From: Tridacna crocea
Taxonomy: Eukaryota > Mollusca > Bivalvia > Cardiida > Cardiidae
Length of the DNA: 64,000 bases
Assembly (NCBI GenBank): GCA_943736015.1
Contig: OX031073.1
Location: 28,113,210 to 28,177,209, forward strand
Direction: 5' to 3'
Positions within the stretch are counted from its first letter, which is position 1. Each line of letters begins with the position of its first letter. Both the position numbers and the translations under genes were made by a program. The notes below the pieces were generated by a model. That model was given only the letters and a program-made list of their open reading frames with translations, was not told the origin of the DNA and searched no databases. Positions 3,030 to 62,775 of this stretch are shown here, in pieces.

Positions 3030-3258
3030 TTAACCCATTACCACTCAATCCCTACTTTTGACGCCCCTGAGAAAGGAGCCTTTAGAAAACACTGTGGGAA
3101 AAGGAGAAAATGCTGGTAACCAGCATTTTCTCCTTTTCCCACAGTGTTTTCTATCCTTCCCAGATCTAATTTCAATTTTTCAGTCACCTTTATTTTGTCG
3201 TCTGCAAATGCTTTCAATTTGGACCAGTCTAAATTTTTCTCGTGTGGTAATGGGTTAA
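3030..3258. mobile_element. TTAA-ended palindromic MITE (family A)
   Basis: Bounded by TTAACCCATTACC and GGTAATGGGTTAA. It differs from the copy at 2009-2237 by only a few bases, pointing to recent activity or local duplication. Confidence 0.88.
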
Positions 3259-10800: not shown

Positions 10801-13800
10801 TTACTAAGGCTTCATTCGTGTATAAACAACAAATATCAGACAAAGTAAAAAACAATTTGAGTTTGAATTAACCAAATGAAATGTGAAATATTTTAATCTA
10901 AAAACAAGAAATAGAATAAGCCCCTCAAAATTAAGAATTATGTTTAGACAACAAAAAGTATAAAATGCCTGGTTCTTAAAGCCTGAAGAAGTCTTCTCAG
11001 AAAAAGGCAGGACATCTGCTAAAATTAGATATTGAGAGGCTCCAGTATCACGTAATTTTAATAGGGGCAGACTGGGCGAATCACTTTCTAGTGACACAAA
11101 ACTATCTGATAAGAATGGTTCATAAATCTCCTTACCAGTATCAGTCTTAGGTGATTTGGCCTAATATCCCATAGAGTTCAGTTCTTAATACATGACTGAG
11201 GTGTGAACTTTAATGAAATAAAGTCTGTAGGCTTAAAACTTTCTTGCTTTTACCGTTTTTTTTCTTAAAACAGGACATTCAGAAATGATATGACATGATT
11301 CTTTGCAATAGTTACAAGTGGGCCGAGTTGAGGGATTTTGACCTTTGACTTAATAAGGAGACTTGGGGTTGGGACTATTCTGATTGTAATTGTCATTATT
11401 TTGATTAAAATTTGGTTTAGGACCAGCAGATGAATAAAACAGTTTTCGAGGGTTTGACGTATTCATGAAAGAGACCTAATGCGTCAAGGCAAAGTTGTCT
11501 GCTAAGCAAACGGATACTTCTAAAATTTCAACTTCTTTCTCGTCCAAAACAGTTTTACATCTAAATTAATGCACCTTTTCAGTTTTTCAAATAACAGAAG
11601 TTGCCTAAGTTTTCCATGATCTGATTCTTTTTCTTTGAATTGCACCCCCTATCAAATAATTGCTAGTCAGACAAACAGAATCACTGTTTCAGCCTCATAT
11701 TATATACTTACACATTCAACTTAACAGTGGTCTAGCTAATATTACTTGCATGCATTAAAGGGAGATAAATTATTTTTGTAAAACAATACAATAGTCTGTA
11801 ACGATTTTCATCGGCCGAGGGGCTTCGGGGCATCAAACGTCGTATTATTGTGCAGCTCATGTGTTTATCTGATTTATACATGTGTTTGTTTTCTTTTCAG
11901 GAGAGGAAGCTTTTTTGTACAGAAATAATGAGGGTCCAGTTATACATTATGATTGTGAAAGTAATTCGTCCACCGTGATTATGGATAATTCTACTTTTGT
12001 AAGTCCATATATTTGTTTTGATAAAACTATTATCAACGGCTTGTCTGATCATGGCTTATTTCTCTTGTTTGACCACTTGAACTGACTGGAAAGTTCTAGG
12101 CAACAGATCTGGATCTGTATTAATTAATTATTCTTAAAATAGTTCTTTGTCTTAATCTTCAAGATTTTCTGACTGTGAATGTAACAGAACTTATGATTGG
12201 CTAAACCGGATGGTTTAGCAAGTCAGAAGTTCTGTTACTTTCACATTGACGAAATTCTGAAGAGTAAGACCAAGAATGTTCTTCAGAGTGGTTGGTGAAT
12301 ACAGTCCCGAAAATGTTTGCAGAGGCCAGTCTCTCACTTAGTAACTTGCGGGGCTTGAGTTTTAGCCAGATTCACTAGTTCGGCAAAATTCTTTCCAATG
12401 ATTGGTGATAGTCATTCTGATATGATCTTTTCCTTTCTCTACCTCTGAACATTGTTTCGTCGATGTTAATATGGGTAGGCGAATGGGTTGGAAAGAATGC
12501 TGTACACATGTACAAATTACCAGTAAAGCAAACAATAGAAAAATCAAAATCACTGTGCAACCGCTTCTTAGCTGGAAACACTTTTAAACAGTAAATACCA
12601 AACAAACAGATGCACTTTTGTATTTATATTGATACATTTAGAGACTGTGTTTCGCCTTGTCGTCTTTCATTGCTTGCGGTACAACTCGGTTTAAATCTCG
12701 GATCATGCCATAGTCACTGACTTTGAGAACTCAATGTTGTTTTTTTTTCAGAGTGCCCTCGACACTGATTTATTCAAGCTATCGGCGGATAAAAAGTATG
12801 CTCTGTTTCAATATGACATACATCACGTAAGTAATACAATTTACAAGTGAAAAGAGATGTTCATTATAAAAGTTCGAATGGTGTTTAATCCACGAATGAG
12901 AATACTTTGGGAATGTTTCTTGACTTGAATATTTGGAGCAACCTATCAGTTAGCCACAACGTGTCAAAAGTAGTGTCCTGGAATGAAGAAATGGGTTACA
13001 GCTTTATATTACACTGTAGTTGTAGTTCTGTTTCTATATAAAAAAATATTTGTATTAGTTTATTTAGAAACAAAATTTAATTCATCCAGATTGAGAGCGT
13101 CTGGAGATGAAAAAATTGAAAGTGATGCAAATGAACCGAAGTTTATTGTCATAGTAGAAAACATGGTGGGAAAAGAAGAAATTGCCGGTTCAAAGCTATT
13201 TCCGTCAGGGTCCTTTACAGTCGACATCGTATGTAAACGGGTTACTTTCTCATGCATGAAATGTAATTGAATATTAACAGATCAGTATTACTCCTCTTAT
13301 TCTGAGTGACAGGTACGAACATGTTCATTTTTTTCAGCTATTTTACAGGGGGCTTCTTACATTGTTGTCAGCATATCAAACTGAAAAAAGATGTTTTATC
13401 ACGGAATTCAACATGACAATACTTTTTAAAAACAATCCAAGATAAAACGGAGAAAAATATGATACTCCTTTAAAGTTGATACACAGCCTCTTGTTATATA
13501 TTCAGACTTCATGCCACAATTTTGTGGCTGTTAGGAAAGTCACAGGATAGTGTGCGTCTAAGATTTGGTATCGTATAAAAAACAGAATATCTAGAATCAT
13601 AAAAAAGGCGATCACCAGTCATTTCTACTGATACATCTGTTCAATTTCTCTCCGCTTGCAAAGACAATATTTATCTCTCTCTCTAGGAGCATTTTCCAAG
13701 AAATTTTGCACGGAGCGATTTCTGTATAAAGTACTCGCCACCTTTTGTCCACGTTTCATCTAACATTTTTTTTCTTATAAGTTAAACTCATATTTTCTAA

Positions 13801-16800: not shown

Positions 16801-19800
16801 TGTTTCAAGCAAGTCTACTGATGGACAAAATCTAATGTAGTCGTAAAGTGCTGTCTGGGATTTGCCTGTGCGGGCAGCGTGGGCTGATCTGAGACGACAC
16901 TTTATGCACTATATCAGAATGTCCCTTTTCGCGTGTTGCAAGACATATAACGATATTAATATAGTACTTTCAAAAACGACAATAAACGTCAAACAAGCAA
17001 AAGCCGAAATTTTACTGTACATTTCAGGTATTTGTACAATACAACGATATATTTTATGTACCGGACCCGGAGACAATGGTGGCCGAGCAGTTAACATTCG
17101 ACGGGTCTGAAGAATTTGAGAGGGTATTTAACGGTGTACCAGACTGGGTTTATGAAGGTAGACTGGTTTTAGAGTTATTATCGAAATGTAATTGTCAAAT
17201 TTGCATCGCTGCCCAGCTTATCGTGTTGGCCATTGTAATTTGAATAATTCTTCAACCAACACTGAAGTTGTTTTCACATGAGAGTGCCCATTTGGCAAGG
17301 CACAACTTAAGTCAAAACATAGTACTGAAGAATCGTGTAAAATATAAATAAGATGTAAAGTTATTTTTCGCATGACTACCTTTGTTTTCAGTGTTATACA
17401 GCCATTATGAATTTTCTTATCTTATACAACACCAGAGATAAGGAAATAGTACCGTATTTGGACAACACGCTGTGATCACACCCTTCATTTAACATTGCAG
17501 ATCCAGATTTCTTTGTAAGATTTAGCATCACAACTGTTTATCGTGAGAAAGCTGCTACTTTTATCATTTCTAGATTTAAAACAGAACCATTATATGCCAT
17601 TTTCCTTAGAGCTATTTTGTGCTCGTAATTGTAAAATACACCTGTTGAAGAAGCGAATGAGCTTCAGGTAAATTTTAGTGCACATTTACCTTTGGACCTA
17701 ACACATCTTTAATATACTTTACAGAGGAAATTCTCCAGTCAGACAACGCTATTTGGTTTGCGCCAAACGGTAAACACATGTTGTATGCTAAGTTTGATGA
17801 CTCGCTCGTACATACGTACGAAATGACCATATATGGAGATTTAACAGATAAATACGTCTTCAACAGACACCTTAAATATCCAAAGGTAATGAAATTGTTA
17901 CTCGAGGAAAGGATACACATGGGGAGATGGATTGAATTAATGGTGTATAAATTGTCGCTTTCAACATTCTTTCCGTCATATCACGGCGACAGCTCACATA
18001 TTCATGTATTTCCTGAGTTCCACCAGTACTAGGCCGGGGCTCTGAAAAGTCTTGTCCAAGAGCAACCCCACGAAAGACCCCAGAGATCCAGTGAGGCTGA
18101 AAGCTGAAAGCTTCCTAGTCACGAGTCCTACACTTTACCACTGAGCCACACAGGACCCCTGGGGAGGTAGATCAAGGGCCAATACAGAACATGCCAAACA
18201 GAGTAGACTCTTTAACCATTTGCTAACAATACCAAATTTCAGAAATAGAAGCCTTTTGAAAACATTGTTGGAAAAAGAGAAAATGCTGTTTAGCAGCATT
18301 TTCTCCTTTTTCCACAATGTTTACATCTCTTCACAGAACAAAATTTCAGTTTTTAAGTCACATTCGCTTTGTCATCTGAAAATAATTCAGACGTGTTCCT
18401 GTATAAAATTCTGTCGTTTGGAAAAGGGCTATTATTGTCAAACGTATCGAGAAATAAAACCGGCAAAAAGCCTTCAACAATTTACAATATTTATTTATGA
18501 ATAAAGGTAAGCGAGTACGATAACAGTTAAGTTTGAAAGAAATTTAGAAAATTTAATCTTGGAGCGGGGAATGAAATAAGTGGCTCAAAATTAAGAGTAA
18601 TGTTTAGACTGCAAAAATATGAAATTCCCGATTCCTAATCCTAAATTAGCAATTATTCTAATTTGCAAATAGATGTCAGCAACCGTTATAAAAAAGATCC
18701 ATTCCAACTTACAGATCTATATTCCAGTTTAAATCCAACTCTTTTCACCAATTCTGTATCCTCCAAGACACAAGTCTAAGTTCAAGTCCAAAACCACCTA
18801 GTAAGTCACTCCTATTCATATCAGCTTGGAAAAGTCTGGATTAGTCTTTTCTTGAAAGATGACAGCATGGATTGATAAACAGCTTCTTTACTAACAACCT
18901 GTTTATAAAAATAGCCATAATAGCAAAAACAATAAAAGTTCCTAGAATATTCTGAAAAAAGGTCACTGTATATCATATCTACATAATACTTCCCCTCCTG
19001 ATGGAAAAAAAAGTTTAAGTAGTAAAACTTTCTTTTGTTAGAATACAAAATATATCAATACACGTAACTTTACATAAAAATACATTATACATAAACACAA
19101 TGTTAACTATTTACAAGTAAGACTCTAGATAAAGCATCAGGGATAATATTATCCCTACCTTTTATGTTTCTGATATCCATATTATATTCTTGTAACAACA
19201 GCAATGTTGATTCTTGTTTTTTTTATTTTGTGAATAAATATCAGAGGATTATGATCACTATATACTATGATGATTGCAGCAGAATACGAACAATAAATAT
19301 ATTTCAAAATGCTGAAGAGCAAGAATAAGAGATCTCTTGTTGAGTAGTTTTTTTTTTTTCTGGTGTTTGTTAAACTTTTTAGAAAAATAAAAACTGGATG
19401 ATCTACACCATTACAGTCTTCTTGAAGTAAAACACCACCTGCACCAGTATCACTAGCATCTACTGCAAGCTTAAATTCTTTTCCAAAATTAGGAGCTAAA
19501 AGAACTGGTTCACTTTTCACTTTATCGAAAGCTTTTTGACAAGCATCATTTCATATTTTTTGCGTTTGCTGAGGAGACTTGTCAGCGGCTCTGCAATGAC
19601 AGGAAAATTACCACAGAATTTCCTATAGTAACCAGTCATACCAAGAAATCTCATAATTTGTCTTATGCATGTAGGTACAGGAAAATCAGAAATAGCTTTT
19701 CTCTAGCTTTTTTGTCCTTGTCCAACAACATGACCCAAAAATGTTGAACTAGCATGACAGAATTTCACTTTTAACAAGATAAATTGTTAATTTGGCTTTA

Positions 19801-22800
19801 CTCAGTCTGTCAAAAAATTGTCTAACAGTCTTTAAATGTTTATCACAATCATGGCTGTGAATGTGACATCATCGATGTAGATTCAATAGTCGTGCGAAAT
19901 ATTGCTGGCGAGTTTTTCATCCCAAAATGCATAACTTTGTATTGATTAAAGTCCATTAGGAATTAGTGAAAGGAATTTTCCAAAATCCTTACAGAAGATC
20001 AAATTTGGTAACATATTTTGCATTACTAATATTGTTAATGCAGTCTTCTACGCTTTGCTACTGGAACGAATCAGTCTTGGTCACAGTATTAACTTTTCAA
20101 TAGTCAGTGCACATATGAAAAGGTTCATCTGGATTTGGTACAAGAATAAAGGGAGAACTCCATTCACTTGACTAAGTTCAATAAAGTCATTGTCTAATAC
20201 TCCTCCCTAAGATGCTCCAATTTCATGTGATTCATTCGATATGGATGTTGCTTCACTGGTTTTCAATTTCCACATCATGGTATATTGTTGGAGTATCAGA
20301 GAACAGGTGCATATATTCAGAAATTATCTTTTTTAACTCATCTTTTTTATTATTATCTTAATGTGAAAGTTTTTTATCTAAATTTCCTAAAAATGTCAGA
20401 GTCTATATTGAAGTTTTAAACAAATAGGGTTGAACTGGCTTAAGTTGATTTTTCCACAACTTATGTCTTCATGGTTAATATGATTTAGGAAACTACATTT
20501 ATCTGTAAAACATTTGAATTATCCCTATCAACATATACCTTTAACATATAAATATGAATAATCGTCAGCCAGGAGTTATCAAATAATTTAAATCACTCGC
20601 GTTTTTCTCTACAGAAAAAGGACCAAAATATCTTGCTTGTAGAGGCCTACCAGGAACTGATTGAAACGCTCAAATATCTTTCTTTCATTTTACGTTGAGT
20701 TTCTAATTGATTAAGAATTTTGCGATGGATTTTATTGATACGTAAATGACCTGACGTATGTATTTCATGAGCTAAGCTTAATATTTCTGACCTATAGGAT
20801 TTAGAAGAACGAATTGATGATTGACAGCCCACTCATCATCAGCAGATATTTCAGGAGGTTGCCCCTTCCTCATTATTATTCTATATTTTATATAAAACAT
20901 ATAGGTGTCCGTGAAAGATCAGTTTCACCAACAGCTTTTTGAAATAAAGGTCCTATTTTTTTATCACTGTGTTGGTCTTCAATTAGTTTTGATCTTGATC
21001 TTGAATCATGGCCTTCATTCACTAAAGATGAAGATGAATTTTAATTAGAATTGGTAGGACTTTCAGACGGGTTTTATGGAAAACATCTGTTAATTTCATT
21101 TTTAAATAGATGACCTAACAAAGAATCAGATAAGTCAATGATATCAGACCTACTTTCAGTCGTAATGGCTTTCTTGCCATTGCTCTAGAAACTGCACATG
21201 ACGAGTAAAGGTCAGGAATTTCTTCCAAAATCGGATCAGGAGATTGATCCATCAAAGGTGTGTCAGTTACAAGTGGATTAACAATTACCTTATCTTCGGC
21301 TAAACCCTTGACTAGTAACAAATGAACACCTTTCAAAGTTTTTTTTCTAATACAAACAGTCACTTGACCATTAATTAAGTCTAAAGACAAATAAATGTTA
21401 TGAAGCGGAACATTAACAAATCCACATCCACATTCTACAAATTGAATAAGGACACATGTCCCAGACGAAGTCTACACAGAAAATGGCAGGACATCTGAAC
21501 AAACGTTTGATTTTTTAAACGTGACTTAGGTGTAGACATTAATGAAGTAAAGCTTGTAGGCTTAAAAAAATCTTGTTTTTCTTTTTTCCTTTTCTTTTTA
21601 AAACAGGCCATTCAGAAATAATATGACCTGATTCTTTACAATAATTATAAGTGGATCGAGATAAGAGATATTGGCCTTTGGCTTCAAAAGAAGACTTGGG
21701 TTTGGGACTATTCCGATTGGAATCATTAAGTTTATCAAAATTTGGTTTATAACCAGTAGATAGATAAAAAGGTTTTCGAGGGTTTGTTTTATACATGAAA
21801 GAGACTATATGCGTCAAGGCAAAGTTGTCTGTTAAGCTAGCAGCTTCTTCTAAATATTCAACTTCTTTCTCGTCTAAGAAAATTTTTTTTTATCTAAATT
21901 AATGCACCTTTTAAATTCTTCAAATAACAGAAGTTGAGTAAGTTTTCCACAATCTGAACTTATTTTCTTTGAATGGCACCACCTAACAAAAAATTGTTCT
22001 TTAGTTCTAGCAAATTCGGTATGCGTTTGACCATTTTCTTTTCTGCAATTCATTTTTTTTTTTTTTGTCTATATGCTTCAGATACTAATTCATAAGGCTT
22101 TAGAATCAATTCTTTAATATTACCATAATTAGAGAGCTGTCCATTACTTAATTGCGAAGAAATATCGAGAGCCTTTCCTGTTACAACGTTTTGCAAGAGT
22201 AAGGTTCAGTGTTCTTTCGGCGAATTCAAACTTCAGCAAATCTTCCAAAATGTGAAAATTATTTATCAACTTCCTGTTCTTGAAATCTTGGAACAAGTCT
22301 GAGGAATTTTGTTATGTCAAAACCGTTAACCTCATGAAAAGATTGTTTTTCTTTATTTTCTATTTCTAATTGTTTCATTCTCACCTATCCTTTGCTCTTT
22401 CTTCTAAACCAGCATACATTTTTTTCTTTTTTCAGCATACATATTTTCTGTTTCTAACTCTCTAACTCTCTAACTCTAAGTCTTTTTCTCTCATTCTTTC
22501 TTCTTTTTCTCAGTGTAGTTTGAATTTTTCGTACTCAATATTGATTTTAACGCATAAGAATGAGAGACAGAGCAGATGAGTCAAGTATTTCTTCCTCAAC
22601 TAAAACTAAAAACTGAACGATAGAATTTTCAATTTCATGCTTTAACATATTACCCTTAATGGCAGACAGTTTATAATGAGAAACAAGATCTAACAGATCA
22701 GACTTTTTGCCAAATTTAACAACTTCTGTGACGGCTCAGCAATATTTTTCAAAGATTAAAACACATGTTTGCTACATGTGTTTGGTCGTTCAGTGGAATA

Positions 22801-25800
22801 AAATTCGAATTTTATTTTTATTATTATTATTTATTATCTAATAACCTTTAGTACGGTAACAAGTACCAAATAATTTCAAAGTATATCCAAAATGACTAGA
22901 TTATCAATCCCAGCCCAGCCCCCAGTTTCTATTACAAGCCATGCGTAACAAGAAAGAAGACCAGCCAAAAGCCTTAAACAATTAACAATATTTATTGATG
23001 AATAAAGGCAAAAGCGTACAATAACAGTTAATTTCGAAAGACATTTTGACATTCTAATCTTAGAAAAAGAAATAAAATAAGTTTCTCAAAATTAAGAATT
23101 ATGTTTAGACAACTAAAAGTATGATATTCCCGGTTCCTTAATCCTAAATTAACAATAGTCTTAACTTGCAAATAGTTATGAGTAACCTGTATAAAAAAGA
23201 ACAATTCCAACGAACAGATCAATATTGCAGTTTAAATCCAGCACTTTTCACGAACTCTGTATCCTCTAAGTTACAAATCTAAGTTCAAGTCCAAAATCAC
23301 CAAGTAAGTCACTCCTATTTATGTCAGCTTGGAAAATTCTAGATTATTCTTTTCTAGAAAGGTGACATCATGGGTTAGTAAACAGCTTGTTTACTAACAA
23401 CCTGTTTCCAAATATACCCAAAATGGAAAACCAATAAATGTTCCTCATGTTTCCAGAATATTCTGAAAACAGTTCATTGTATATCCTATCTACATAACAC
23501 TATATGCAGGATAGAGATCAAAGGTACATCTAAAATTTTCACTTTTTGATTACATTTCAGCCGGGCACCAATAACCCAAACGTATCACTGCACGTGATCA
23601 ACCTAGAAACCAATATCACACAAGAACTGATGCCACCAAAGGAACTTAGAGACCAGTAAGTTTTTTAACATATTTATTGTAAAAGAATTGAATGTCTCAT
23701 TTAATTTCAGAATTATGGAGTTTAAAGTCACTCATTCAGTCTAATGATCTTTTCTTTCAAAATAGTATGGTGTCCGCATATTTTTTTGTTCGTGCCCGAG
23801 TGTCCGTTGGACACTTTAGAGCCCTAGCTTAGAACTGGTGAAACCCAGGATATGCATGGGTAAGTGAGGTGTCGCCGTAATATGATTGAAATAATGTTTA
23901 AAGAGGCGAAAAACACCATTCAAGAAATAGATAAATAATTGAAGGGTCATTTTTGCAAAGGTTTACTCTCTTTTTTCATTTGAGCAGATATGACGACATT
24001 ATGCTTATTTAACAAGAACAGGCTCTTTACTCCATTAAAGGAAGACTACGAAATTTTGTTTAAACTAACAAAAAATCGTTGCTTTCGAAACTTATTAACT
24101 AAGAATTCAATTTCGAATGGTTGATGAATGTTGGCTCTGAATTATAGACTTGGAAGTCAGAAATAAATATAAACTGGTTCGTATATACGATTTTGGAACT
24201 AATTGTATCAACCCTTAGGCTGATAAGTGCAACTCACTGACGTTTTGTGGACAGTGTAGATCAAGATCAGACTGCACAGAATGTGCAGTCTGATCTTTGC
24301 TCTACACTGTCCAAGAAAAAGGTATTATTACGTTTTATTCCCCCTAAAAATATAAAATAGCAATATAACCGAACTGAAAATTGCATTTTAGTTACTTAGG
24401 AGGATAAGGGTTATTTTTGTCCGTGTCTTGTGAGCCATCTTTCCGGACAGATGTCCCGGCAAAAAGGGATTTTGATGCATCTCTTCATTATACAAAGGTA
24501 GTCATCATTTGGGTCTAAAAATCCATTTGGCTTGAAACTGGCTGTATCATGAGGTAGACTGATGTTTGGACATGCATGAAATTGACCAATAGCAAATACT
24601 TTAAGCCCTTGTAAGACTGTATGAAGGTTACAGACTGACCTGGGTCGTTACTTTTTGAACATGCATCATGCCACCATTCTCATAGAGCATTGCTCAAATA
24701 TCTTATTAACCCTTTACTCTATTTATACTCATTTCTACGCATTGCTTGTAGGAGCCCTTGGAAAACTTTGTTGCAAAAGGTGAAATTGCTCGTGACGAGC
24801 AATTTCACCTTTTGCAACAATGTTTCTACACTATCAAAAGGTGTCATATACACATAAGAAACGGCTTCATCCTTGCTGTTGCTTAGGTCAATTAGAGATA
24901 CCATAGAAATTCCTTATGGGGTAAAAGATTAATGTGTAGAATTTTCCTGATTTGTAGTCCTTTTATTTTCAGACCTTTTTATTTCACTGCTGTTTCCTGG
25001 CGAGATAACAACACTGTGTGGATAGCCTGGTCAAACAGAGCACAAAACATGTCCATTTTTACAGTGTGTGCGGCCGTCTCGGGCAAATGTACCAGAGTAA
25101 GTAAATATTTACAGAATGATTAACGTCAAAATGCCAATTGTAAATGATAATGTATGTCAAATTAAAAAAAAATTGAACTATGCTTGAAGAAAAGAAGGCT
25201 TAATTTATGCTCAAAAATTGTCGATTTATGTCAGGCTGTGCAATCAGTACGGGCTGACTTTGGACGATTTCTTTAATCTGTAAAATATCTGCACGGAAAA
25301 GAAATATTCAACATTCGTATATAGTCGATTGTTAGACTATATGGTTGCAGAACCAAGCAGAGAAATGTACAAATAAAGACATAAATTAGTGAACGAGCAT
25401 CGCAATACACGTGAACTACTTTTGTAAACTAGACCCGTTTCAAATCAATATGATTATTTATCGAATCACCGTGCTCAGGATTTTTTCATGTTATTTTTTT
25501 TTTTCAGAATCACAGGGTGCGGGCTGAGGGCGGTTGGCTTGAAATCGTAAGCTTTTTCCTGTTTTACACAAGTAATATTGCTTTATTGACAAAACACTCA
25601 ACAGTGTTATTGTTTAAAATGGTTTTGGGATTGTTGATGACAATGTAAACGGAACATTCTTCCGCTTGATTGACATCCAATTATCCATTTACTTAAGTGA
25701 TAAGTGTACACTCTTCAATTGCTGAATAGATAGAATGAACAGTTCAAGCCAGTAGTATATACCAAAACATTGTATTTATAATGCGCTAAATACCGCAGAA

Positions 25801-28800
25801 AACTCACCGTATTAAGGAGTGTATGTTCAAAATCAGACTACACGTTCGATGTTGTCTGATCTTGATCTACACTGTCCACAACAGTTCATTCAATGACCAG
25901 GCTCAGCAGCTAAAGGTTTTTAATTATAGAGTTGGTGACGTTTGAAGCAAGCTCTGGAACTACTGATTAGAAGTCTTACTGGATTTACCGTTCTTGGTCT
26001 TCGAACTGAGGTCTTTTACGGATTGCTTATATAGATGACTGTATTTTTGTTATTATTGAGAGAAAAGAGTGTACCTGGAGTCCCTCAGGGTGATGCACTG
26101 TTCGTAGTATACTTTCCAGATGTACTTTCCTTGTGTCTCTTCATGTTCTACATCGAGTGTTGAAAGCATAAAAATAACATGCCTTCAGAAAGAAACCTTT
26201 TACAACAAAATCATGCTATTCAGAAAATTTTGCTTGTAAAGACGACGAAAAAGTCGCTGTGAGTCGTTCCTCCTTTTTTCACCAATACTTTGGTCATTAT
26301 CCGGTCATTTGTCTTTCCGTATATATACAATGTTTTTTTCCTCTCCTAGCTTGAGTATTTGATCTGTTTTCAGATAATTTGTATTGTCATTGAAATGTGA
26401 ACGATAATCATGAATTGACACTTTGTATGCTATGGAAATGAAATAAACATACTGTGGGCACAACAGAAGACACAGAAGTTGCATTTTCAAAATATATCTA
26501 AAAGTACATGTATCTGATATAGTAGACAAGATCAAAATGCGCATTATCTTCAGTCTGCTATTCAGGCTAGCATTAATAGATTAGAAACTAATCTCTGTAC
26601 CACATGAAATAAATGTAGATTTGTCCAAAAAGAAAGCATTGCAAACTAAACTTTAGAAGTGCCTCCAATAATGGAATCTGTTTTGGATAAGATAGAAAAC
26701 ATTTTAAAAGAAGGAGTAAATGCTGGTTAACACCATTGATTTACAAGTACGATAACTATCATTGATATTATTATAATTAGTTGTATTTATTGTCACGGTT
26801 GCCATCATTGTTTCTTATACTGACAGTTCAAACCGGCAATGTTTACTCCAAATGGTGAAGCCTATTTTATAGTTCTACCACACAAGGATGGGTCAGCCGG
26901 AACCTTTCAGCATATAGCAATGATTAACTCATCAGAGGATCTAGATGTAAGATCTGTGTTTCTAATAGTGGAAGTGATATTTTACAAATATACAAAATTA
27001 TGGCAGCAAATATGGGGACAAGAGAAAACGGAAGTATTGTCCCGGCTATGTTATATATTCCCCTAAGCGAATTGGGAAAAAATGATGTTTAACTCTTTAC
27101 CAAACGATAAAATTTTACACTGGTCCAAATTGAAAGCACTTGCAGACGACAAAATAAACGAAACTCATAAATTGAAATTTCTATCCAGTAGGGTAGAAAA
27201 CATTGTGGGAAAAGGAGAAAATGCTGGTTACCAGCATTTTCTCCTTTTCCCTCAATGTTTTCAAAAGGATTCTATCTCAGGGTCGTAAAAACCAGGGATT
27301 ATTTGGGAAAGGGTTAAATAAAACCTTTCGCTACCAGATTTGTGTCTGTAGCTTTACAAAGTAGATAAATTAGATATTTTTTTCTTTGTGTATTTATCGT
27401 TTGTGCCCTTAAATACTTTTTACGTTAGTAATAGTGAGTAAATTTTATCTTGTATCGCTAATTATCAAATGTGCCGCATTTTCCAGCTATTTTTTATTAT
27501 ATTATTCATATTCAGAATTTAAAGGAAATAGCCATTTAAATGGCTGAGGAGTTTTATCTCAACCACTCATATAGCTAAGCTTGGAATCTGAAGTCAATAT
27601 CTAGAATAGCTAGTCTTTTCACCAACCATTCTTCAGAACATTTGTAGTCTTATTCTCAAAGATTTTCTAAATTTTGAGCTAACTCAACTTCTGACTGGCT
27701 GAACCACATGCTGTAGTTAACCAGAGTATGTGGTACTTTCAAAGGTAGAAAATTCTTGTAAATAAGATCAAAAAAATATTATAAAGAATGGTTGTTGAGT
27801 AATGGACCTCATTTGGTTTATTTAACAGATTCGTCATGGAGACGGCACTAAGATCTTTCTGACCGCTGGAAGATGGGACGTCACAAATATAATAGGATAT
27901 GATGACGAATCGAAAACTATGTAAGCAAATCAAAAAGAATGTAAAGATATGTGGTAGCTTCCTTATTTCTAATATATCATTTCATAAATTTTCCTCAAAT
28001 ATCATATCAAACAAAACACTGTTAATACAATATTGTGGTATAAGAGACCAATAACAGACTGCAAATATAGGCTCAGGTTCTGCCTTTTCAGCTCTCTTCC
28101 AAAGGAAACAGTGTTAACAGTACAATTTCTTTTCACTTAACTGCGCTAATTTTCAGTGTAATGCAACCTTTACCAATTTTCTTATCTTACACCTATTTAA
28201 GATAAGCAAATAGTGCCGTATTTGGTCAAAGAGCTCATTTCTAAAAGAATTTTGATCCTGGTTTCTTGAGAAACTAACTGTCCAAAATGAAGATCTTTAC
28301 AACGCTTGTTGCAGTCCATTTATATGAGCATGCCCTGTGAAAAGGGGATTAAATGTATCTGGAAAAAATATCTACCCATGCCAGCCTACGCAGGCTGACA
28401 TGAGTTTAAACTTTCTGTTATTCGTCAAACTTCCTGCAGCACAAAGGATCAGCCTACCTCATGATTTGATAGGTTATTAGACAAAATGAATTATATGGGA
28501 TCATAATTGTGTAATGATTTTTCTGGTTTGGAAATGAAGGAGATATATTATATTTCATGTGTCTATTTTTAGAAATTTTATGGGTAAAGAAATGACGTCA
28601 TTTAAGCTGGGAGGAATTATTTCCCCCTCACAGTGAATATTTTCCCCCTACCAAAAATCTGCTTAAATGACTTGAGATCACTAGTTTTAAAAATGACATT
28701 TGTTGAAATAAATAATCAGATGAAATATATAATTTATTTCATCAGCTTGTGGTTAATATGGGGAAATATTTGCCTCAAAAGGGAAAGGTCCGTGAAAATA

Positions 28801-31800
28801 ACTCGTGCCTCACAGCACTCGTTATTTTCGCATACCTTTCCCTTTTTCGGCAAATATTTCCCCATATTAACCACAAGCAGATGAAATAAACTCTATGTAT
28901 TGAACCTATTTTGCGAAAGCGTGGCTAATCATGCTGCAGTAGAATATTAGTTGGGGTTTTTTCCCACAGGTCATTGGACACTTAAAGTCGCTTTCAACAG
29001 CTTAAAACATGAACGTAGGTTTCAGTTTTGTGACTTTCAACTTTAAGTACATTGTGTTTTCCTTTTTCTAGATATTTCATTGGAACAAAGCCTGGCGATC
29101 CAAAACAAAGACATTTATTTAGGTTTGAGTATATATATCTACATACCGTTCTTTATACTATTCTTCCGTCCTCTCTCTCCCTCTCTTTCTCTCTGTCTGT
29201 CTGTTTGTCAGTCTGTCTGTCTGTCTGTATGTATGTATGTATGTATGTATGTATGTACATGTATGTATGTATGTCTGTTTTTGTCTCTGTCTCTCTATGT
29301 ATCTGTCTGTCTATCTCTCTCTCTCTCTCTTTCTCTCTCTGTTTCTCTCTCAATTTTAAACTTTTACCTGTTGAAAGATTTCCAATGGAAAGAATGTGTA
29401 AAAAAACAACTAAATGAGGCTGGAATGATTGGTTTTACTATTTAAAGTATTGCAAACTTATGTGAATAATTATTTCCGACCTTTTTCTCTTTTTCCCCCT
29501 ATGATATTTACCTTTTGCCTTAACCCTGTCCCAGACGACAAATTTTAGACTCTTCTAAACTCAAAGAGTTTGCAGACGACAATTTCAAATTTGATAAAAA
29601 TGGCAGAAAGTTCTCCAAATGGGTAGAAAACACTGTGGGAAAAGGAAAAATTGCTCGTTACGAGCAATTTCTCCATTTCCCACAGTGTTCTCAAAAGACA
29701 TGTACTGCAGACACGTAAAAACAAGGGCTTGTTTGGAAAAGGGTTAATTCTTGTCCTAAAGGAAGCCCTCAAAACGAAACACATTGGCGGTCTCCTCTCT
29801 GGATTTCTCTTAAAAAAACTGGAATAAATTATTAATTTATCTCATTAAGTGAAATAAAGACCTGTACTCAAAAGTGATATAGGAATTGTAGATATTTCGG
29901 AAAGCATCCATCGCATATTTGTCATAAGCAAAACGTAACAACCAATAATTTCAAACTTTCTTCCCATAGCGCCACATCTATCAAAGACAGCGCCAATTTC
30001 CGTGACGTCACATGTATGTCATGTGACATTGGCAGCCATTGTACATACGTCGACGCCTCGTTCACGCCGACCGGGAAGTTTTATGTGTTAGGTTGCAAAG
30101 GTCCTGCCGTTCCTTCATACCATCTATACTCCACTGAAAGTGGCTTTGGTAAGTTTGGGTTAGGATATAGAGTTTATTTCATCAGCTTGTGGTTAATATG
30201 GGGAAATATTTGCCGAAAAAGGGAAAGGTATGCGAAAATAACGAGTGCCGTAAGGCACGAGTTATTTTCGCAGACCTTTCCCTTTTGAGGTAAATATTTC
30301 CCCATATTAATCACAAGCTGATGAAATAAATTATATATTATATTTCCTCTGATTATTTTGTCAAAGAATGTCACTTTTAAAACGACTGATCCCAAGTCAA
30401 TTATCCAGATTTTCAGCAGGAGGAAAATATTCACTGTGACGGGGAAATAATTCCACCCAGCTCAAATGACCTCATTTCTTTGCCCATAACATTTCTAAAA
30501 ATAGACACATGAAGTATAATATTATGGGTTTATTTCATGCTTTTCTGTAGTTTAAGGGGAATTAATGGTGGATTATAAGGTTTGATAATTCATAGTTACC
30601 ACAAGTGAAATTAGCCACCACTTTTGGCCACCGCTAGGCATTTACGGGTAGAATACCCTAATAGGAGACGTGTAACAACGCTTTCGTCGTCAAAAAACGC
30701 ATGGTTTCGGCTAGGACTCGGGGTAACCCGCAAACGATCGGCCATTAGATACTTATCCTCGCCTCGATTACATATTATTCGAGTCTTAGTCGAATTTGTA
30801 CGATCTAGGCGATGAAAGGCGATGTTATATGAATGTTACCTGAATCCCATTATGGTGCTCTGTTGTTAACTCTTTGTCAAGCGACAAGATATTAGACTGG
30901 TCCAAATTTAAAGCACTTGCAGACGATAAATAAAACCTAACTCAAATATTGAAATTTGTCTTGGGATGGGCAGAAAACATTGTGGGAAAAGGGGAAAATG
31001 CTGGTTACCAGCATTTTCTCCTTTTCCCACGATGTTTTCAAAAGGCTGCTATTTCAGGGTCGTAAAAACCAGGGATTGTTTGGGAAAGGGTTAACTAATT
31101 ACCTGTCGAACAAAGTGCAATAGATGCCCTTGAAAACATTCAAACGAATGAATGAATGAAAAAATGAATGAATGTTGTTTTATGGCGCATCATTTGAAAA
31201 CATTCAAATGAATGAATGAATGAATGAATGAATGTTGGTTTATGGCGCATCGACAGTTCATTCAGTTGAAAGATGGATTATGCATACCTTGAGGTTTCAT
31301 ATACATGTAAACTTTTTGTGTTGGAAAAATATAGAAACTGCTCATTATGAATCACTTTTTCCTTTTCATCCTTCATTTTTTTCAAAATTAGTCGAGTGCA
31401 AGACAAATCCAGTGTATTGTAGATGCTTTGTGTTAAATAACATAAATGGTACTATAATTTCGCAGTAAAGACGTTTGAGACGAACGATGCGCTGCGAACA
31501 ATGCTGGAGGATGTGGCTCTCCCTGTGCCGGAATACATGGAAATACCTTTGTCACCAGATAGTACACAAAGTAGGGTCATCTTATTATCACCAGTCAGAT
31601 AGAGTTGTCTCCCTTTGAATACTCTTTGTGCAAATAGGCTTAGAAAATGAACGAGTTTCTCCAGACAGTTCGATTTTATTCTGGTATACATGGTGCCCTT
31701 AAAGTAGCCATCCTTTATAGGAAAAAGAAACGAGAAACAAAAACTTTAATGAATTATCAGACATTGTATCGTTTATGGTTCTATAAATCACATTGTGAGT

Positions 31801-37800: not shown

Positions 37801-40800
37801 TGGGCAAAGCAATGTCGTAATTCAAGCTTGGAGAGTTATTTCCCCGTCACAGTGAATATGTTCCTCCTGCCGAAAATCTGGAACTACTTTTTTTGTTCTA
37901 CTTGAGATTACTAGTCTTAAAAGTGGCATTCGTTGACAAAATAATCAGAGGAAATATAGTTATAATTTATCTTATCAGCTTGTGGTTAATATGGGGAAAT
38001 ATTTGCATCAAAAGGGAAAGGTCTGCGAAAATAACTCGTGCCTCACGGCACTCGTTATTTTCGCATACCTTTCCCTTTTTCGGCAAAAATTTCCCCATAT
38101 TAACCACAAGCTGATGACATAAACTCTATTTCTTACTCTGGTAAAAAGCGCTCAATCTGTTTCCGTGATGCATTATACAAAGCAAGTCATCACATAATCA
38201 TCGATCCATAAAATCGATTTTGTCTAACAATAGTCCTTAGCAGTAAATTTAATAAAAGCAAGAAGTTTCGGCCCATATCAGCTTGCGTGGATTGCTCTGG
38301 CTGACAAAGATCGATACATTTTGCGGATGTGTTTTTAAAAAGCGTGGCTATGTTTGATTTAGTCATGACTATTAAAAGTTATTCTTAAATTGATTTTGTA
38401 ACTACTGTATTTAATCATAGGCTCTGAAACTTCCTTGGTCTATTAAGGGATAATGACATTTTCATTATCGGACACTGTTACTATAAACAGCACACTGGGG
38501 ATTCCCTCGATATCGTATATAGTAAGAAAAACTGTGCAACGAAATCGGAAAAAAACCCTTTCCCCTTTTAGAGATGATATTGAAAAAAATAGAAAAATGA
38601 ACCAATCGGCCTATGCAGATGAGTTCACAAATGAATTTTCTCCTTTACTCTAACCTTAAAAGTTCCAAATAGCTTTCGCCATCAATTAATAGCTCTCGTG
38701 TAAAATGAGTTTCAAAAAAACTTCCATATTTTCCAGATTACCATGCACTGACGTGACATGATTTATAATCCTGTAGCTAATAATGATAAAAAGATTTTTT
38801 TTTTTTTCAAACAACGATCAAAATATTTCTGCCGATGTATTGATGAAATTATCAAATTAGTAGTTCGTCCGTTGTGATTCATACTTTTCATCTACTCCAG
38901 TGTCACGATTTTCATCTCTCATTTTGCATATTCTTAAAGGCGTTCTTACCGTTCACTGGACATCTATTGATAGTAAATTCTCGTAAGTTATAATTGGCAG
39001 CGTCATAGGAAATTGTGTGATATGGTGTTTCGAGACAAGCGTAACGAGGAGAACCAGCAACAGACCTTCAACACTATTAACACTATTTATTAATGGATAC
39101 AGGTAAAAGAGAACAATAAGAGTTCAGTCTGAATGAAATTTTGGCATCTTTTAATCTTAGAACAAGAAATAGAATAAGTCCCTCAAAAATAAGAATTATG
39201 TTTAGACTTCAAGTAGATTGAATTTGCTGGTTCATAAGACCGAAATTAACATTAGTTTTAACTTGCAAGTAGAAAACATTGATTCTAATTTTTAATTTCA
39301 TGGGTAAAAGTCAGAGGAGTATGATCACTACATGTATATATAATGATGGCTGCAGGAGAAGACGACAAATATATTTCGAAACGCTGAAGAGCAAGATTGA
39401 GAGATAACACTTTTTTTCTATTGTTGAATAGTTTTTCTGGTGTTAATTAAACTTTTGAGAAAAGTAAATAAATGGATGATCTACACCAGTACGATCGTCT
39501 TGAGGTAAAACACAACCTTTACCAGTATTACTAGCATCTACTGCAAGCTTAAATTCTTTTACTAAAATATGAGCATTTTTTAGTTTGGTTTTTACCATAT
39601 CGAAAGCATTTTACAATCGTCATGCCATACAATTTTTTTCGTTTGCCGAGAAGACTTGACAGTGGCTCAACAATGAACAGAAAAATTAACAAAGAATCTC
39701 CTTAGTAACCAGCCATACCAAGAGATCTCTTTAGTTGTCTGTTGCATGTAGGTACAGGAAAATCAGAAATAGCTTTTACTTTAGCTTTCTACCCGTCACT
39801 GTCCAACAACATTACCCAAAAATGATAAACTAGCATGACCAAATTCACTTTTATCAAGATTAATTGTTAATTTGGCTTTACTCAATCTATCAAAAAATTC
39901 TCTGATAGTCTGTAGATGTTCATCCCAATCATCCTTGTGATTAATGACGTCATCGATATGGGCCCTACAGTCGTCCAAACCAGATATTATCTTGTTAAGA
40001 TGCCGAAATGTTACCGGCGAGTTTTTCATCCCAAACGGCATAACTTTGTTATGATAAAATCCATCAGGAACTGCAATTGCAAAGATCTCTTTTGCTCTTT
40101 CAGTGAGAGGCATTTCCCAAAATCCTGTTAGCACATCAAATGTTGGTACATATTTTGCATGACCAATATTGTCATTGCAGTCATGTAGTCTTGGCAATGG
40201 AAACGTATCAGTCACAGTATTAACCTTTCTGTAGTCAGTGAGCATACAAAAAGTTCCATCCGCCTTTGCTACAAGAATACAGCGAGAACCCCGATAACTT
40301 TGACTAGGTTCAATAAATTCATTGTTGAATAGATACTTGAATTCTTCTCAAAGATGCTCAGTGTCTTGTTTCTTGGGATTCATTCGATATGGATGTTGTT
40401 TCACTAGTTTTAGAATTTTCAACAACATATTTTTGGTGTCGCCTTTCAGGAGTTATTATCACGTAATATACCGTAAGTCACTGACTTTTTCCTCTACAAA
40501 AATAGGGCCAAAATATCTTGCTTGTAGAGGCCTACCAGCAATTGATGGAAGAGCACTGATCTATAAGCTTTATGTATGACAACTTGATGATTGACAGCCC
40601 TTTATCATCAACAGACACTTCAGGAGGGCGCTACTTTCTCATTAATATTCCATTTTGTGTATATAAAGAGAGACTGAGGTTCCAGTAAAAGATCAATTTC
40701 GCTGACAGTTTTTCTAGGTAAAGGTGCTATTTCTGGATCATTTGTGTTGGTCTTCACTTAGATTTGACCTTGACCTTGGATAATGACCTTTAAGGTGAAG

Positions 40801-43800
40801 ATATATATTCAAATTCTGATGAATTGTGTTATGAATTTGTTTGACTTTCAATCGGGTTTTGTGAGCTAAACCTACTAATTTTATATTCAACTAAATGACC
40901 AAACAAAGATAAGTCAATATTAGTCTGTTTTTCAGTAATAATGGCTTTCGTTGCCATAGCTCTTGTAGCAGCACATGGTGGGTAAAGGTCAGAATTTTCT
41001 TCCCTAATTGGATCGGGTTATTGTTATTGATCCTTGCAATATGCCAGTTACTAGAGGATTAACAGTTACCTTATCTTCGGCTAAATCACTGCCTAACAAG
41101 AAATGAACACCTTTAATTTTTTTTCTCATATCAACAGTTACTGGGTCATTTATTAAGTCTGAAGACAAATGCTATGGGGTAGAACATTAACAAATCCACA
41201 TTTAACACCCTGAATAAGGGCACTTGTGCCGGAAGAAGTCTTCTAAGAAAAAACAAAACAGAACATCTGCTGAAATAAGAGATTGAGAAGCTCCAGTATC
41301 ACGTAAAATTTTAATAGGGGTTACGATAGACTGGGCAAAATCACTTTCAGTGACACAAAAGCATCTATCAAGGATAGTTAAAATATCTCCAAAACAGTAT
41401 CAGTCTCAGATACTTTAGCCTGGACAAACGTTTTGTCTTAAAAATATGACTTAGGTGAAGACTTTAATGGAGCAGGGCCCGTAAGCGTAAAACTTTCTTG
41501 TTTTCCCTGTTTTCGTTTTAAAACAGGACATGAATCAGAAATTATATGGGCCTGATTATTTGTAATAATCACCATGGATTAGTAATTTTAAAGAAGGGAT
41601 TTTATACTTTGGCTTCAAGAAGACTTCGGTTTTGGACTCTTCTGATTGGAATTGTCATTGGGTTGATTAAAGTTTGGTTTAGCACCAATAGAAAAATACA
41701 AAAGGTTTTCAGACATTTGATTTATTCATGAAAGAGATCTTAGGCATCAAGACAAAGTTGTGTGAGAAGCAAGGAGTTTCGTCTAAAGCGTCAACTTATT
41801 TCTCGTCTAAGAAAGTTTTCATATCTGAATGAATGCCATTTTTTTTTTGTATTCTTCAACTTACAGTAATTGTCTAAGCTTTCCATCATGTGAAACTATT
41901 ATCTTAGAATGGCACCAGCTATCAAATAATTGTTTTATAGTTCTAGCAAATTCAACATGAATTTGACCGCTTTGCTTTCTGCAGTTCCTAAATTTTGTCT
42001 ACATGTTTCAGGTAGCAATTAATAGGCCTTTACAGTCAGATCTTTAACATTATCATAACTAGAAAGCTGTCCATTACCTGATTGAGAAAAAATATTCACC
42101 TGCCTTTCCAGTTACAACGCTTTCTAGATTAAGCTACAGTGCTCTTATGGCCACTTCAAATTTTTAGCAAATCTTTCGTAATCTTAAAAGTATTTATTGG
42201 TTTTCTGTTCTTGAAATGGTTGAACAAGTACGAGATGTTTTGTTATGTCAAAATCATTAATCATACGCAAAGATAGATTTTCCTTACTTTCTATTTCTAA
42301 GTCTTTCATCCTCAAATGAAACTGGCTTTCCTTCTCTTTTTCATCAGCATACTTTTTTTCTAACTCTAATTTTAATTCTTTTATTTCATCCTTTCTTCTT
42401 GCTCTTATTCTTTTTCTTTCATCATTTCTTCTTTTTCTATCTTTAGTTTTAATTTTTAGAACTGGCTCAATGTTGATTTTAACGTCTGTCTTAGACACAA
42501 GAATGAGAGACAGAGCATATGAGCCAAATATTTCTTGACCAACTAAAATCTAAACAATAGATTTATCAACTACATGCTTTAACATTGTACCTTTAATTGC
42601 AGTCAGTTTATAATAAGAGCAAGATCTTATACATTAGAGTTTTTTGCCAAATTTAACAAGTCCTGAGAAGGCCCAGCAATGAGTTTTTCAAGATCAAAAT
42701 ACATTATTGCTTTTTGCTGTTTCAGTAGAATAAAAAACAAACTTTATTTCTATTTTTTATCATCTAATGAACTTTAATAATGTAACAAGTTCAAAATGAT
42801 TTCAAAGTATATAAAAATGTACTAGGTGTGAGATAAGCGTAAGGAGAAAAGGAACGAGCAACAAGTTTTTAACAATTAACTTTTTTTTCATTATGAATAA
42901 AGACAAAAGAGAACTATAAGAGTTAAGTTCGAATAAGCTTTTGACAATTTTAATCTTTGAACAAGAGATAGAATAAGTCCCTAAAAATTAAGAATAATGT
43001 TTAGACTACAACAAGTATGAAATGTCTGGTTCATAAAATCTAAATTAACAATAGTTTTAACATGCAAATAGATATGAGCAACCTGTGTGTAAGAGGTAAA
43101 TAATTCAAATTTACACATCTATATCCCAAGTTAAATCTATCACTTTTCACAAATTCTGTATCTTCAAAGCCAAAACTTTAAGTTCAAAATCAAAATCCAC
43201 GAAGTCAATCCTTATTTATATTAGCTTGGAAAATTCTAGATTAGTCTTTTCTAGATACATGTAGATAGAACATAGATTGGTGAAATTATTTGTTTTCTAA
43301 CAACTTGTTTCTTAAAATAACCAGAATGAAAAAAATCAATTAATATTTTCTCTGTTTCTAGAACACTCTGTATATATAGAGTGAAAGTGATAAGGAGAAA
43401 CAGGTTACACGTATATCCTTTTTACATAACAATGACGATCCGGAAAATGTGGAACTTTTTTAAATATTTTTGAGATGACAGATATTGTTTGATGGCAAGA
43501 ACCGTTCGGAATTTTGGAGGGTCATGGTAGTGACGAAAAATCATTTTTTGAACCATACTGCACCGGTAATTAAGTTTATTTTACCATTTTTGATGATAAA
43601 ATATTATCTCTTAAAGGGGACATGGGATCAAAATGTATTTGATTTCGTTGCACCAAGAGGGAATCGCCAATGTATTATGTATAGTAACGGTGTAAGTGAA
43701 AATTTGTGTCTATTCCGTGTTCCATGATCGACCGAAGAAGATTGTAGTGTTCCGTGAATATGACAAATAGAGCTTCAAAGGCCTGTGCTCCCATTACCAC

Positions 43801-45480: not shown

Positions 45481-45752
45481 AATATGGAGTGCAACACGCG
45501 AAAAGGTGCATTCGGACATTTGCGTAAAGTGCCGTCCCGGATTAGCCTGCGCAGTCCGCGCAGGCTAATCCGAGACGGCACTTTACGACTACATTAGATT
45601 TTGTGCTACAGTAGACTTGCGTAACACAGAAAATCACATAAAATCGGAAAGTATCGTTTCGGATTAGCCTTTGCGGACTGCACGCGCTGATCAGAGACAA
45701 CACTTTACGCAAATGTCCGAATGACCCTTTTCGCGTGTTGCACTCCATATAT
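45481..45752 (-). mobile_element. 272-bp TIR element (family F), copy 2, inverted
   Basis: Reverse complement of 35521-35792: TATGGAGTGCAACACGCGAA at the left end, the nested CGGATTAGCCTGCGCAGTCC hairpin on the left side. It lies 85 bp after the DPP4-like stop codon, probably within the 3' UTR. Confidence 0.9.
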
Positions 45753-54783: not shown

Positions 54784-55013
54784 TTAACCCATTACCACAC
54801 AGTCCCTACTTTTGACGCCCCTGAGAAAGAAGCCTTTAGAAAACATTGTTGGAAAAGGAGAAAATGCTGGTAACCAGCATTTTCTCCTTTTCCCACATTG
54901 TTTTCTACCCTTCACAAAACAAATTTCAAATTTTCAGTCACTTTTATTCTGTCGTCTGCAAATGCTTTCGATTTGGACAAGCCTAAATATATTGTCGTTT
55001 GGTAATGAGTTAA
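54784..55013. mobile_element. TTAA MITE, family A
   Basis: TTAACCCATTACCACACAGT to GGTAATGAGTTAA; near-perfect GGAGAAAATGCTGGTAACCA hairpin. Very close to 2009-2237 and 62960-63187. Confidence 0.88.
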
Positions 55014-62573: not shown

Positions 62574-62775
62574 TTAACCCTTCACCACACAATGCCGACT
62601 TTTGACGCTCATGTAAAAGAAGCCTTTTGAAAACATTGTGGGAAAAGAAGAAAATGCTGGTAACCAGCATTTTCTCCTTTTCCCACAATGTTTTCTACTC
62701 TATCAAAGCAAAATTACACCATGATAAAATTGTCCTCTGCAAATGCTTTCAATTTGGATGAGGCTGAAACACTTT
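62574..62775. mobile_element. TTAA MITE, family A
   Basis: TTAACCCTTCACCACACAAT, AGAAGAAAATGCTGGTAACC hairpin, right end truncated after TTGGATGAGGCTGAA. Confidence 0.8.

What the first reader, a model, noticed from the sequence alone, without database searches (positions are those of the whole stretch)
18436..23499. Ty3/Gypsy element whose integrase pieces lie before reverse transcriptase (Gmr1-like pol order)
Seen: on the minus strand, an H2C2-type integrase start (SLAHEIHTSGH, 20832-20650) and a GPY/F module (ARYFGPF, about 20651-20571) come before RT (about 20260-19640) and RNase H (19520-19182). RNase H is followed within about 190 bp by a polypurine tract (AGGAGGGGAAG) and the 3' LTR, so there is no room for a downstream integrase. 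Known: canonical Ty3/Gypsy order is RT-RNase H-integrase. The reversed, Ty1/copia-like order defines the Gmr1 group, which I recall as first described from deuterostomes. Inference: this host, probably a mollusc, carries a Gmr1-like lineage.
Basis: partly seen in the sequence, partly recalled or inferred. Interest (0 to 1): 0.8.

Follow-up and report, generated by a model that had tools for sequence, protein, structure and literature searches.

The report
Retrotransposon with integrase before reverse transcriptase
An old, broken jumping gene, probably in a mollusc, carries its integrase before its reverse transcriptase, as a known but unusual group does, and it belongs to a branch that lost the integrase's catalytic part yet still multiplied.

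Summary
At 18436-23499 (minus strand) lies a decayed LTR retrotransposon: LTR, Gag with a SCAN-like part, protease, half an integrase zinc finger, GPY/F module, reverse transcriptase (RT), RNase H, polypurine tract, LTR. The order is not an accident of this copy: integrase pieces precede RT in 15 of 15 loci that hold any (23 examined), and in 33 of 38 further RT copies an integrase piece lies within 800 bp upstream. Five ordinary Gypsy loci of the same genome have RNase H before integrase. RT is Ty3-like and Gag weakly SCAN-like, as in Gmr1; a tree with Gmr1 references could not be made. Myosin exons suggest a mollusc.

Not noticed before: this copy lacks the catalytic core, and the same deletion junction, in frame, recurs (77 genome places at up to 3 mismatches, reversed control 0). 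In 11 of 19 aligned copies a second, frameshifting deletion follows. So it belongs to an amplified integrase-deleted branch, presumably moved by integrase from full relatives. Gmr1-like elements were already reported from crustaceans and an annelid.

The parts
22930..23499 (-). 5' LTR (570 bp)
   Evidence: 83.5% identical to the 3' LTR over 547 aligned bases, K2P 0.186
22907..22924 (-). primer binding site, TGGGGGCTGGGCTGGGAT here; L020 reads TGGGGGCTCGTCCGGGA (tRNA-Pro-like; the tRNA assignment is recalled)
22500..22760 (-). gag, N-terminal part
   Evidence: homologous pieces in other copies
21874..22400 (-). gag capsid region with SCAN-like stretch (21874-22068)
   Evidence: Pfam SCAN 0.029 here; 1.6e-5 in L017, 0.0046 in L015; all under cut-off
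21530..21889 (-). gag C-terminal part with zinc-knuckle remnant
   Evidence: counterpart in L020 zf-CCHC 7.2e-4, just under cut-off
21050..21530 (-). protease and linker region
   Evidence: DTGAS motif readable in relatives
20710..20850 (-). first half of integrase H2C2 zinc finger and the stretch before it
   Evidence: Pfam Integrase_H2C2 1.1e-3, under cut-off
20703..20715 (-). deletion junction: second half of the finger and whole catalytic core missing; shared with other copies
   Evidence: 77 genome places
20560..20704 (-). integrase C-terminal stretch with GPY/F module; a second 44-bp deletion lies within it at about 20670-20680
   Evidence: relative L020 Integrase_p58_C 2.5e-6
19640..20480 (-). 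reverse transcriptase, broken frames
   Evidence: relative at 39796-40347 RVT_1 5.8e-19
19100..19640 (-). end of RT and RNase H (open stretch 19182-19550)
   Evidence: RT_RNaseH_2 7.9e-15
18989..18999 (-). polypurine tract AGGAGGGGAAG
18436..18988 (-). 3' LTR, end eroded
39033..43370 (-). second copy of the same family: LTR - gag - protease - GPY/F (40474-40550) - RT (39796-40347) - RNase H - LTR; most of integrase deleted
10890..11662 (-). third, fragmentary copy: gag-protease fused to LTR

Best explanation
A dead copy of a Gmr1-like Ty3/Gypsy LTR retrotransposon whose pol order is protease - integrase - RT - RNase H. Full members would move by copy and paste: transcription from the LTR, tRNA-primed reverse transcription, and integration by their own integrase (established for the class, inferred here). 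This copy belongs to a derived branch in which an in-frame deletion removed the second half of the integrase zinc finger and the whole catalytic core, joining the finger to the GPY/F end. Shown: the order, the shared junction, nested second deletions, and unrelated flanks for the junction copies whose flanks I compared (except the pair L012/L021). Inferred: the branch multiplied by borrowing integrase from core-bearing relatives in shared particles; because integrase lies upstream of RT, the first deletion could leave RT in frame; later members with the 44-bp frameshift probably borrowed RT as well.
For: Order: 15 of 15 loci with integrase pieces, of 23 examined, have them upstream of RT, none downstream. 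RT-anchored sample of 38: 17 keep core, 9 core-deleted (8 of them show the junction, L031 lost it), 6 GPY only, 1 finger only, 5 nothing upstream. The five places in both top-40 lists (core; RT) have the core upstream. The RNase H piece ends 108-129 bp before the 3' LTR match in 8 of 10 copies where both were matched (L027 336 bp; L010 partial matches). Control: five ordinary Gypsy loci of the same genome have RNase H upstream of rve (Pfam on three of them). Junction: same place in independent copies, in frame, 77 places genome-wide with reversed control 0. The 44-bp gap is in 11 of 19 aligned core-deleted copies (two with further small gaps) and not in the core copies aligned (L013 partly, L020, L023); by spacing it is absent from 15 of 17 further core copies.
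Against: No Gmr1 reference sequence was at hand, so clade membership rests on order, Ty3-type RT and SCAN-like Gag. The SCAN hits and the rve hits are under Pfam's cut-offs. The tree of the GPY-RT stretch is star-like and does not gather core-deleted copies (13 changes of label, no fewer than in shuffles), so one origin of the branch rests on the identical junction and nested deletions. Three weakly supported groups mix L037, L039 and L041 with core copies, which hints at recombination. Core copy L056 has a shortened stretch where the 44-bp deletion lies, and L032 an enlarged one. Flanks were compared for LTR-anchored copies only, not for the 77 junction places. Borrowing in trans was not observed. 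No clear target-site duplications.
Confidence: 0.85

Rival explanations
1. Canonical Gypsy element whose integrase pieces come from a nested or rearranged neighbour, so that the order is an accident of this copy.
For: The copy is heavily decayed and only two integrase fragments remain.
Against: Same order in 15 of 15 loci with integrase pieces and integrase pieces upstream in 33 of 38 RT-anchored copies; core sequence is in place in L023.
Confidence: 0.02
2. The core-deleted copies arose by many separate deletions at one weak spot (ATTT microhomology), not by amplification of one deleted ancestor.
For: Four-base microhomology at the junction, read by eye; star-like tree with core-deleted and core copies mixed.
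Against: Same junction in the copies aligned and 77 places genome-wide; a second 44-bp deletion nested on that background.
Confidence: 0.1
3. One deletion, but spread by recombination or template switching among co-packaged RNAs, so the deletion is an allele shared across the family, not a separate branch.
For: Mixed, weakly supported groups in the GPY-RT tree and equal divergence within and between classes (mean p 0.185 and 0.181 within, 0.183 between).
Against: No positive evidence against it; internal branches are too short to tell (terminal 3.30 and inner 0.42 in sum).
Confidence: 0.3
4. Core-deleted copies multiplied by segmental duplication of the host genome.
For: L012/L021 share flanks at 92.8%; among core copies L040/L046 and L063/L064 are 99.5% alike and L058 94.1% like L040/L046.
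Against: Among 21 flanks of 17 loci, apart from L012/L021 only short repeat-like matches were found; junction places lie on many contigs.
Confidence: 0.05

Closest known systems
Gmr1 clade of Ty3/Gypsy (Gmr1 of Atlantic cod; Goodwin and Poulter 2002, seen only as a reference entry; described in passages of PMC6238403 and PMC8220671)
   Same: Integrase upstream of RT, Ty3-type RT and RNase H, SCAN-like Gag
   Different: Host probably a mollusc; old family (LTR K2P 0.14-0.20 in five copies); a core-deleted branch has multiplied; RT/integrase tree not made
Gmr1-like elements of crustaceans (GyRex4-5, GyLiva4 and others; PMC3587641) and of the annelid Lamellibrachia (LGF3; PMC8220671)
   Same: Gmr1-like elements in protostomes
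   Different: Other hosts; I saw no integrase-deleted branch in the passages read
Non-autonomous LTR retrotransposons (TRIM, LARD, BARE2 and the like; recalled)
   Same: Internally deleted elements that multiply with enzymes in trans
   Different: Here gag, protease, RT and RNase H regions are kept in the window copy and the first deletion takes only the integrase core, in frame
Canonical Gypsy elements of the same genome (L069-L073)
   Same: Ty3-type RT, RNase H, H2C2, rve (p58-type C-terminus matched in L072)
   Different: Order RT - RNase H - integrase

Membership tests
Gmr1 clade | Integrase upstream of RT in pol | tested here: met
   15 of 15 loci with integrase pieces, of 23 examined; 33 of 38 RT-anchored copies (upstream side only looked at); control of opposite order
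Gmr1 clade | RT and RNase H of Ty3/Gypsy type, not Copia | tested here: met
   Best solved structure Ty3 RT 8.7e-28; RVT_1 5.8e-19; RT_RNaseH_2 7.9e-15
Gmr1 clade | Gypsy-type integrase: H2C2 finger, DDE core, GPY/F or p58-type C-terminus | tested here: met
   In relatives: H2C2 2e-6 and 4e-6 and p58_C 2.5e-6 over cut-off; rve 0.008 and rve_3 0.0095 under cut-off. In this copy the core is missing.
Gmr1 clade | SCAN-like Gag capsid (PMC3406341, PMC4131045, passages) | tested here: inconclusive
   SCAN 1.6e-5 L017, 0.0046 L015, 0.029 this copy, 0.14 L010; all under Pfam's cut-off; none in the L018 and L021 pieces or L020:5755-6030
Gmr1 clade | RT and integrase group with Gmr1 references in a tree | not testable with these tools
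   No Gmr1 or GyDB reference sequences at hand
LTR retrotransposon | Paired LTRs, PBS, polypurine tract | tested here: met
LTR retrotransposon | Target-site duplication | tested here: inconclusive
   None clear by eye in W1, L012, L015, L020; copies old and ends eroded
Non-autonomous LTR retrotransposon | Shared internal deletion in copies at independent sites | tested here: met
   flanks of the LTR-anchored copies unrelated except L012/L021
Non-autonomous LTR retrotransposon | Mobilised by enzymes in trans | not testable with these tools
   Inferred from loss of the catalytic core; core copies coexist

The most novel reading that the evidence does not exclude
A Gmr1-like lineage in a mollusc has spawned an integrase-deleted parasite of itself. 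Because integrase lies upstream of RT, a single in-frame deletion could turn the element into a Gag-protease-RT machine that needs only borrowed integrase; it multiplied to the same order of copies as its core-bearing relatives and then spawned second-level frameshifted derivatives.
Probability: 0.55. Interest if true: 0.5.

Novelty: new variant of a known kind. Interest (0 to 1): 0.4.

Why it matters
It extends the Gmr1 pol order to a probable mollusc; the mollusc survey that I read in passages (PMC6238403) has no Gmr1 row in its table of mollusc clades. It also offers a natural case for asking how pol order shapes which non-autonomous derivatives can arise: with integrase in the middle, an in-frame loss can spare RT.

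Tried and rejected
Rejected: nested element, rearrangement of one copy, Copia element (RT is Ty3-type), chance order. RT relatives in viral contigs: none confirmed. Rfam on the window at gathering threshold: no match. Paper searches for Gmr1 with molluscs or bivalves and for Gmr1 at large: in the listings and in the passages that I opened (eight papers) I saw no report of Gmr1 in a mollusc; most listed papers were not opened. Searches for integrase-lacking or trans-mobilised LTR elements were narrow; one search found none, and the papers listed were not opened. This is absence in one open-access library only. The GPY-RT tree (39 copies, with core-deleted L012, L015, L021, L028 and the copies without GPY left out) did not separate core-deleted from core copies. 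Target-site duplications were not clear. Genome searches with the RNase H, H2C2 and RT proteins did not complete, so open-frame lengths of core-bearing copies are not known. The word for core copies (25 places, reversed control 0) differs by one base from most copies, so it undercounts; the like-for-like junction count is 41 at up to 2 mismatches. RT-anchored counts are 17 core and 9 core-deleted; the two estimates differ.
Full report
What is there. The minus strand of 18436-23499 holds two LTRs 82-83% alike around about 3.9 kb with, in sense order, gag pieces, protease region, half an H2C2 finger, a GPY/F module, RT, RNase H and a polypurine tract. I call this copy W1. Comparison of copies sets the LTR ends at TGTTATGTAG...CTCGTAACA and shows a primer site GAAAT-TGGGGGCTCGTCCGGGA in L020. 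W1 is dead: frames are broken throughout. K2P between its LTRs is 0.186; L012 0.141, L015 0.169, L019 0.198, L020 0.152; W2, L010 and L021 gave 0.24-0.29 on partial LTRs. No rate is known, so no age in years is claimed.

Other copies. The window holds two more, W2 at 39033-43370 and W3 at 10890-11662. The window lies in a genome of 1.05 Gb held as G000; the LTR query has 1186 first-look candidates, the RT query 1235 and the core query 762 (40 scored each). Pieces of W1 and W2 were mapped one by one. Of 23 loci (20 plus W1-W3), 15 have integrase pieces; in all 15 these lie upstream of RT on the same strand; 8 have none. L023 shows LTR, gag, protease, H2C2, core, GPY and RT in that order in one copy; L020 and L013 also keep core sequence (L020 has only the start of RT). 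Pfam on stretches as they stand: H2C2 2e-6 and 4e-6, Integrase_p58_C 2.5e-6 (over cut-off), rve 0.008 and rve_3 0.0095 (under cut-off).

A sample not chosen by LTR. For 38 of the 40 RT hits (W2 and L015 left out) I took 800 bp upstream: 17 keep core sequence before GPY-RT, 9 have finger and GPY but no core, 6 GPY only, 1 finger only, 5 nothing. Of the 9, 8 show the junction and L031 lost it; the finger-only copy L061 runs on into the finger's second half. This sample looks upstream only. One GPY-only copy (L045) has a core-side match further upstream. Five places appear in both the core and RT top-40 lists; in all five the core is upstream. The RT query came from W2, so the sample is of W2-like RT.

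Control. The five best rve loci of the same genome (two families by their matches) have RNase H upstream of rve (Pfam on L069, L071 and L072), so the method sees the usual order where it exists.

The deletion. In W1 and in other core-deleted copies the finger ends and the C-terminal stretch begins at the same place, within an ATTT that both sides share. Read in the finger's frame the protein continues (for instance KILNHLERTQCKMKERY in L051; longest in L010 and L012; L025b has a stop and L021 an extra base there). A second 44-bp deletion, a frameshift, is in 11 of 19 aligned copies (W1, L009, L022, L025a, L025b, L028, L036, L039, L049, L051, L066; L009 and L049 with further small gaps, L028 without the junction itself); L010, L012, L019 and L021 keep that stretch, L037, L041 and L053 share another second deletion, and L015 has its own. 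The 44 bp are present in core copies L013 (partly), L020 and L023 and, by spacing, in 15 of 17 further core copies; L056 is shorter there and L032 longer. A 38-base junction word with up to 3 mismatches hits 77 places, reversed control 0. Of 21 flanks from 17 loci, only L012/L021 match along their length; L010/L019, L012/W1 and the two flanks of L012 share short repeat-like stretches.

What the tree says. The GPY-RT stretch of 39 copies gives a star: terminal branches sum to 3.30, inner ones to 0.42; median terminal branch 0.096 for 16 core-deleted and 0.080 for 19 core copies. That fits activity at about the same time, but the tree neither supports nor excludes a clade; 13 changes of label are no fewer than in shuffles (mean 12.7).

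Membership. RT is closest to Ty3 RT among solved structures (8.7e-28). Gag has SCAN-like matches, best 1.6e-5 and all below cut-off; several gag pieces had none. PMC3406341 and PMC4131045 (passages) tie SCAN to Gmr1-like Gag. Order is the defining trait (PMC6238403, PMC2774666, passages). No reference tree was possible.

Host. Two muscle myosin exons have scallop striated-muscle myosin as best solved match (1dfk/1b7t/1kk7; species names recalled). For one exon scallop (98.8 bits) and squid (3i5f, 92.5) chains lead the rest (81 or less). For the other the lead is small: 142.5 against 138.3 for Myosin-6, with squid at 137.2. A mollusc is likely; I know of no annelid or brachiopod myosin in that library, so these are not excluded.

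Literature, all seen as passages. Gmr1-like elements in protostomes: crustaceans (PMC3587641, which calls them the first in protostomes) and the annelid Lamellibrachia (PMC8220671); a wider annelid survey did not find that clade (PMC8556966). The mollusc survey's Table 1 has no Gmr1 row (PMC6238403). Fish and frog Gmr elements: PMC11117352, PMC4131045.

Noticed in passing
window, e.g. 2062-2132, 3083-3153, 27196-27262, 54837-54907, 62629-62695: A 71-bp near-perfect palindrome (35-base arms, 1-base loop) is scattered through the window: 48 half-site matches against 0.11 expected, and 14 of the 25 inverted repeats shown are of this kind. A related palindrome interrupts the integrase region of L020 (seen).
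   Followed up: partly
window 45482-45750, 30165-30338, 35352-35525, 28727-28896, 37961-38128: Longer inverted repeats (arms 82-124 bp, 82-89% complementary, 4-21 bp apart), possibly MITE-like families.
   Followed up: no
window 17679-18032 (+): Open stretch resembling a dipeptidyl-peptidase-4-like exon next to the element (resemblance recalled, not searched).
   Followed up: no
G000:C1:44514442-44527710: Muscle myosin locus with several matches to the same head segment one after another, as if alternative exons were arrayed in tandem.
   Followed up: no
L012, L021, L022, L025, L031, L036, L039, L049, L053, L066: A tandem duplication of about 70 bp in the H2C2 start occurs in several core-deleted copies, tripled in L049.
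   Followed up: partly
G000, many places: Many of the best rve matches (150 scored of 2019 candidates) lie in long open frames, in contrast to the decayed Gmr1-like copies read here; only five of them were read.
   Followed up: no
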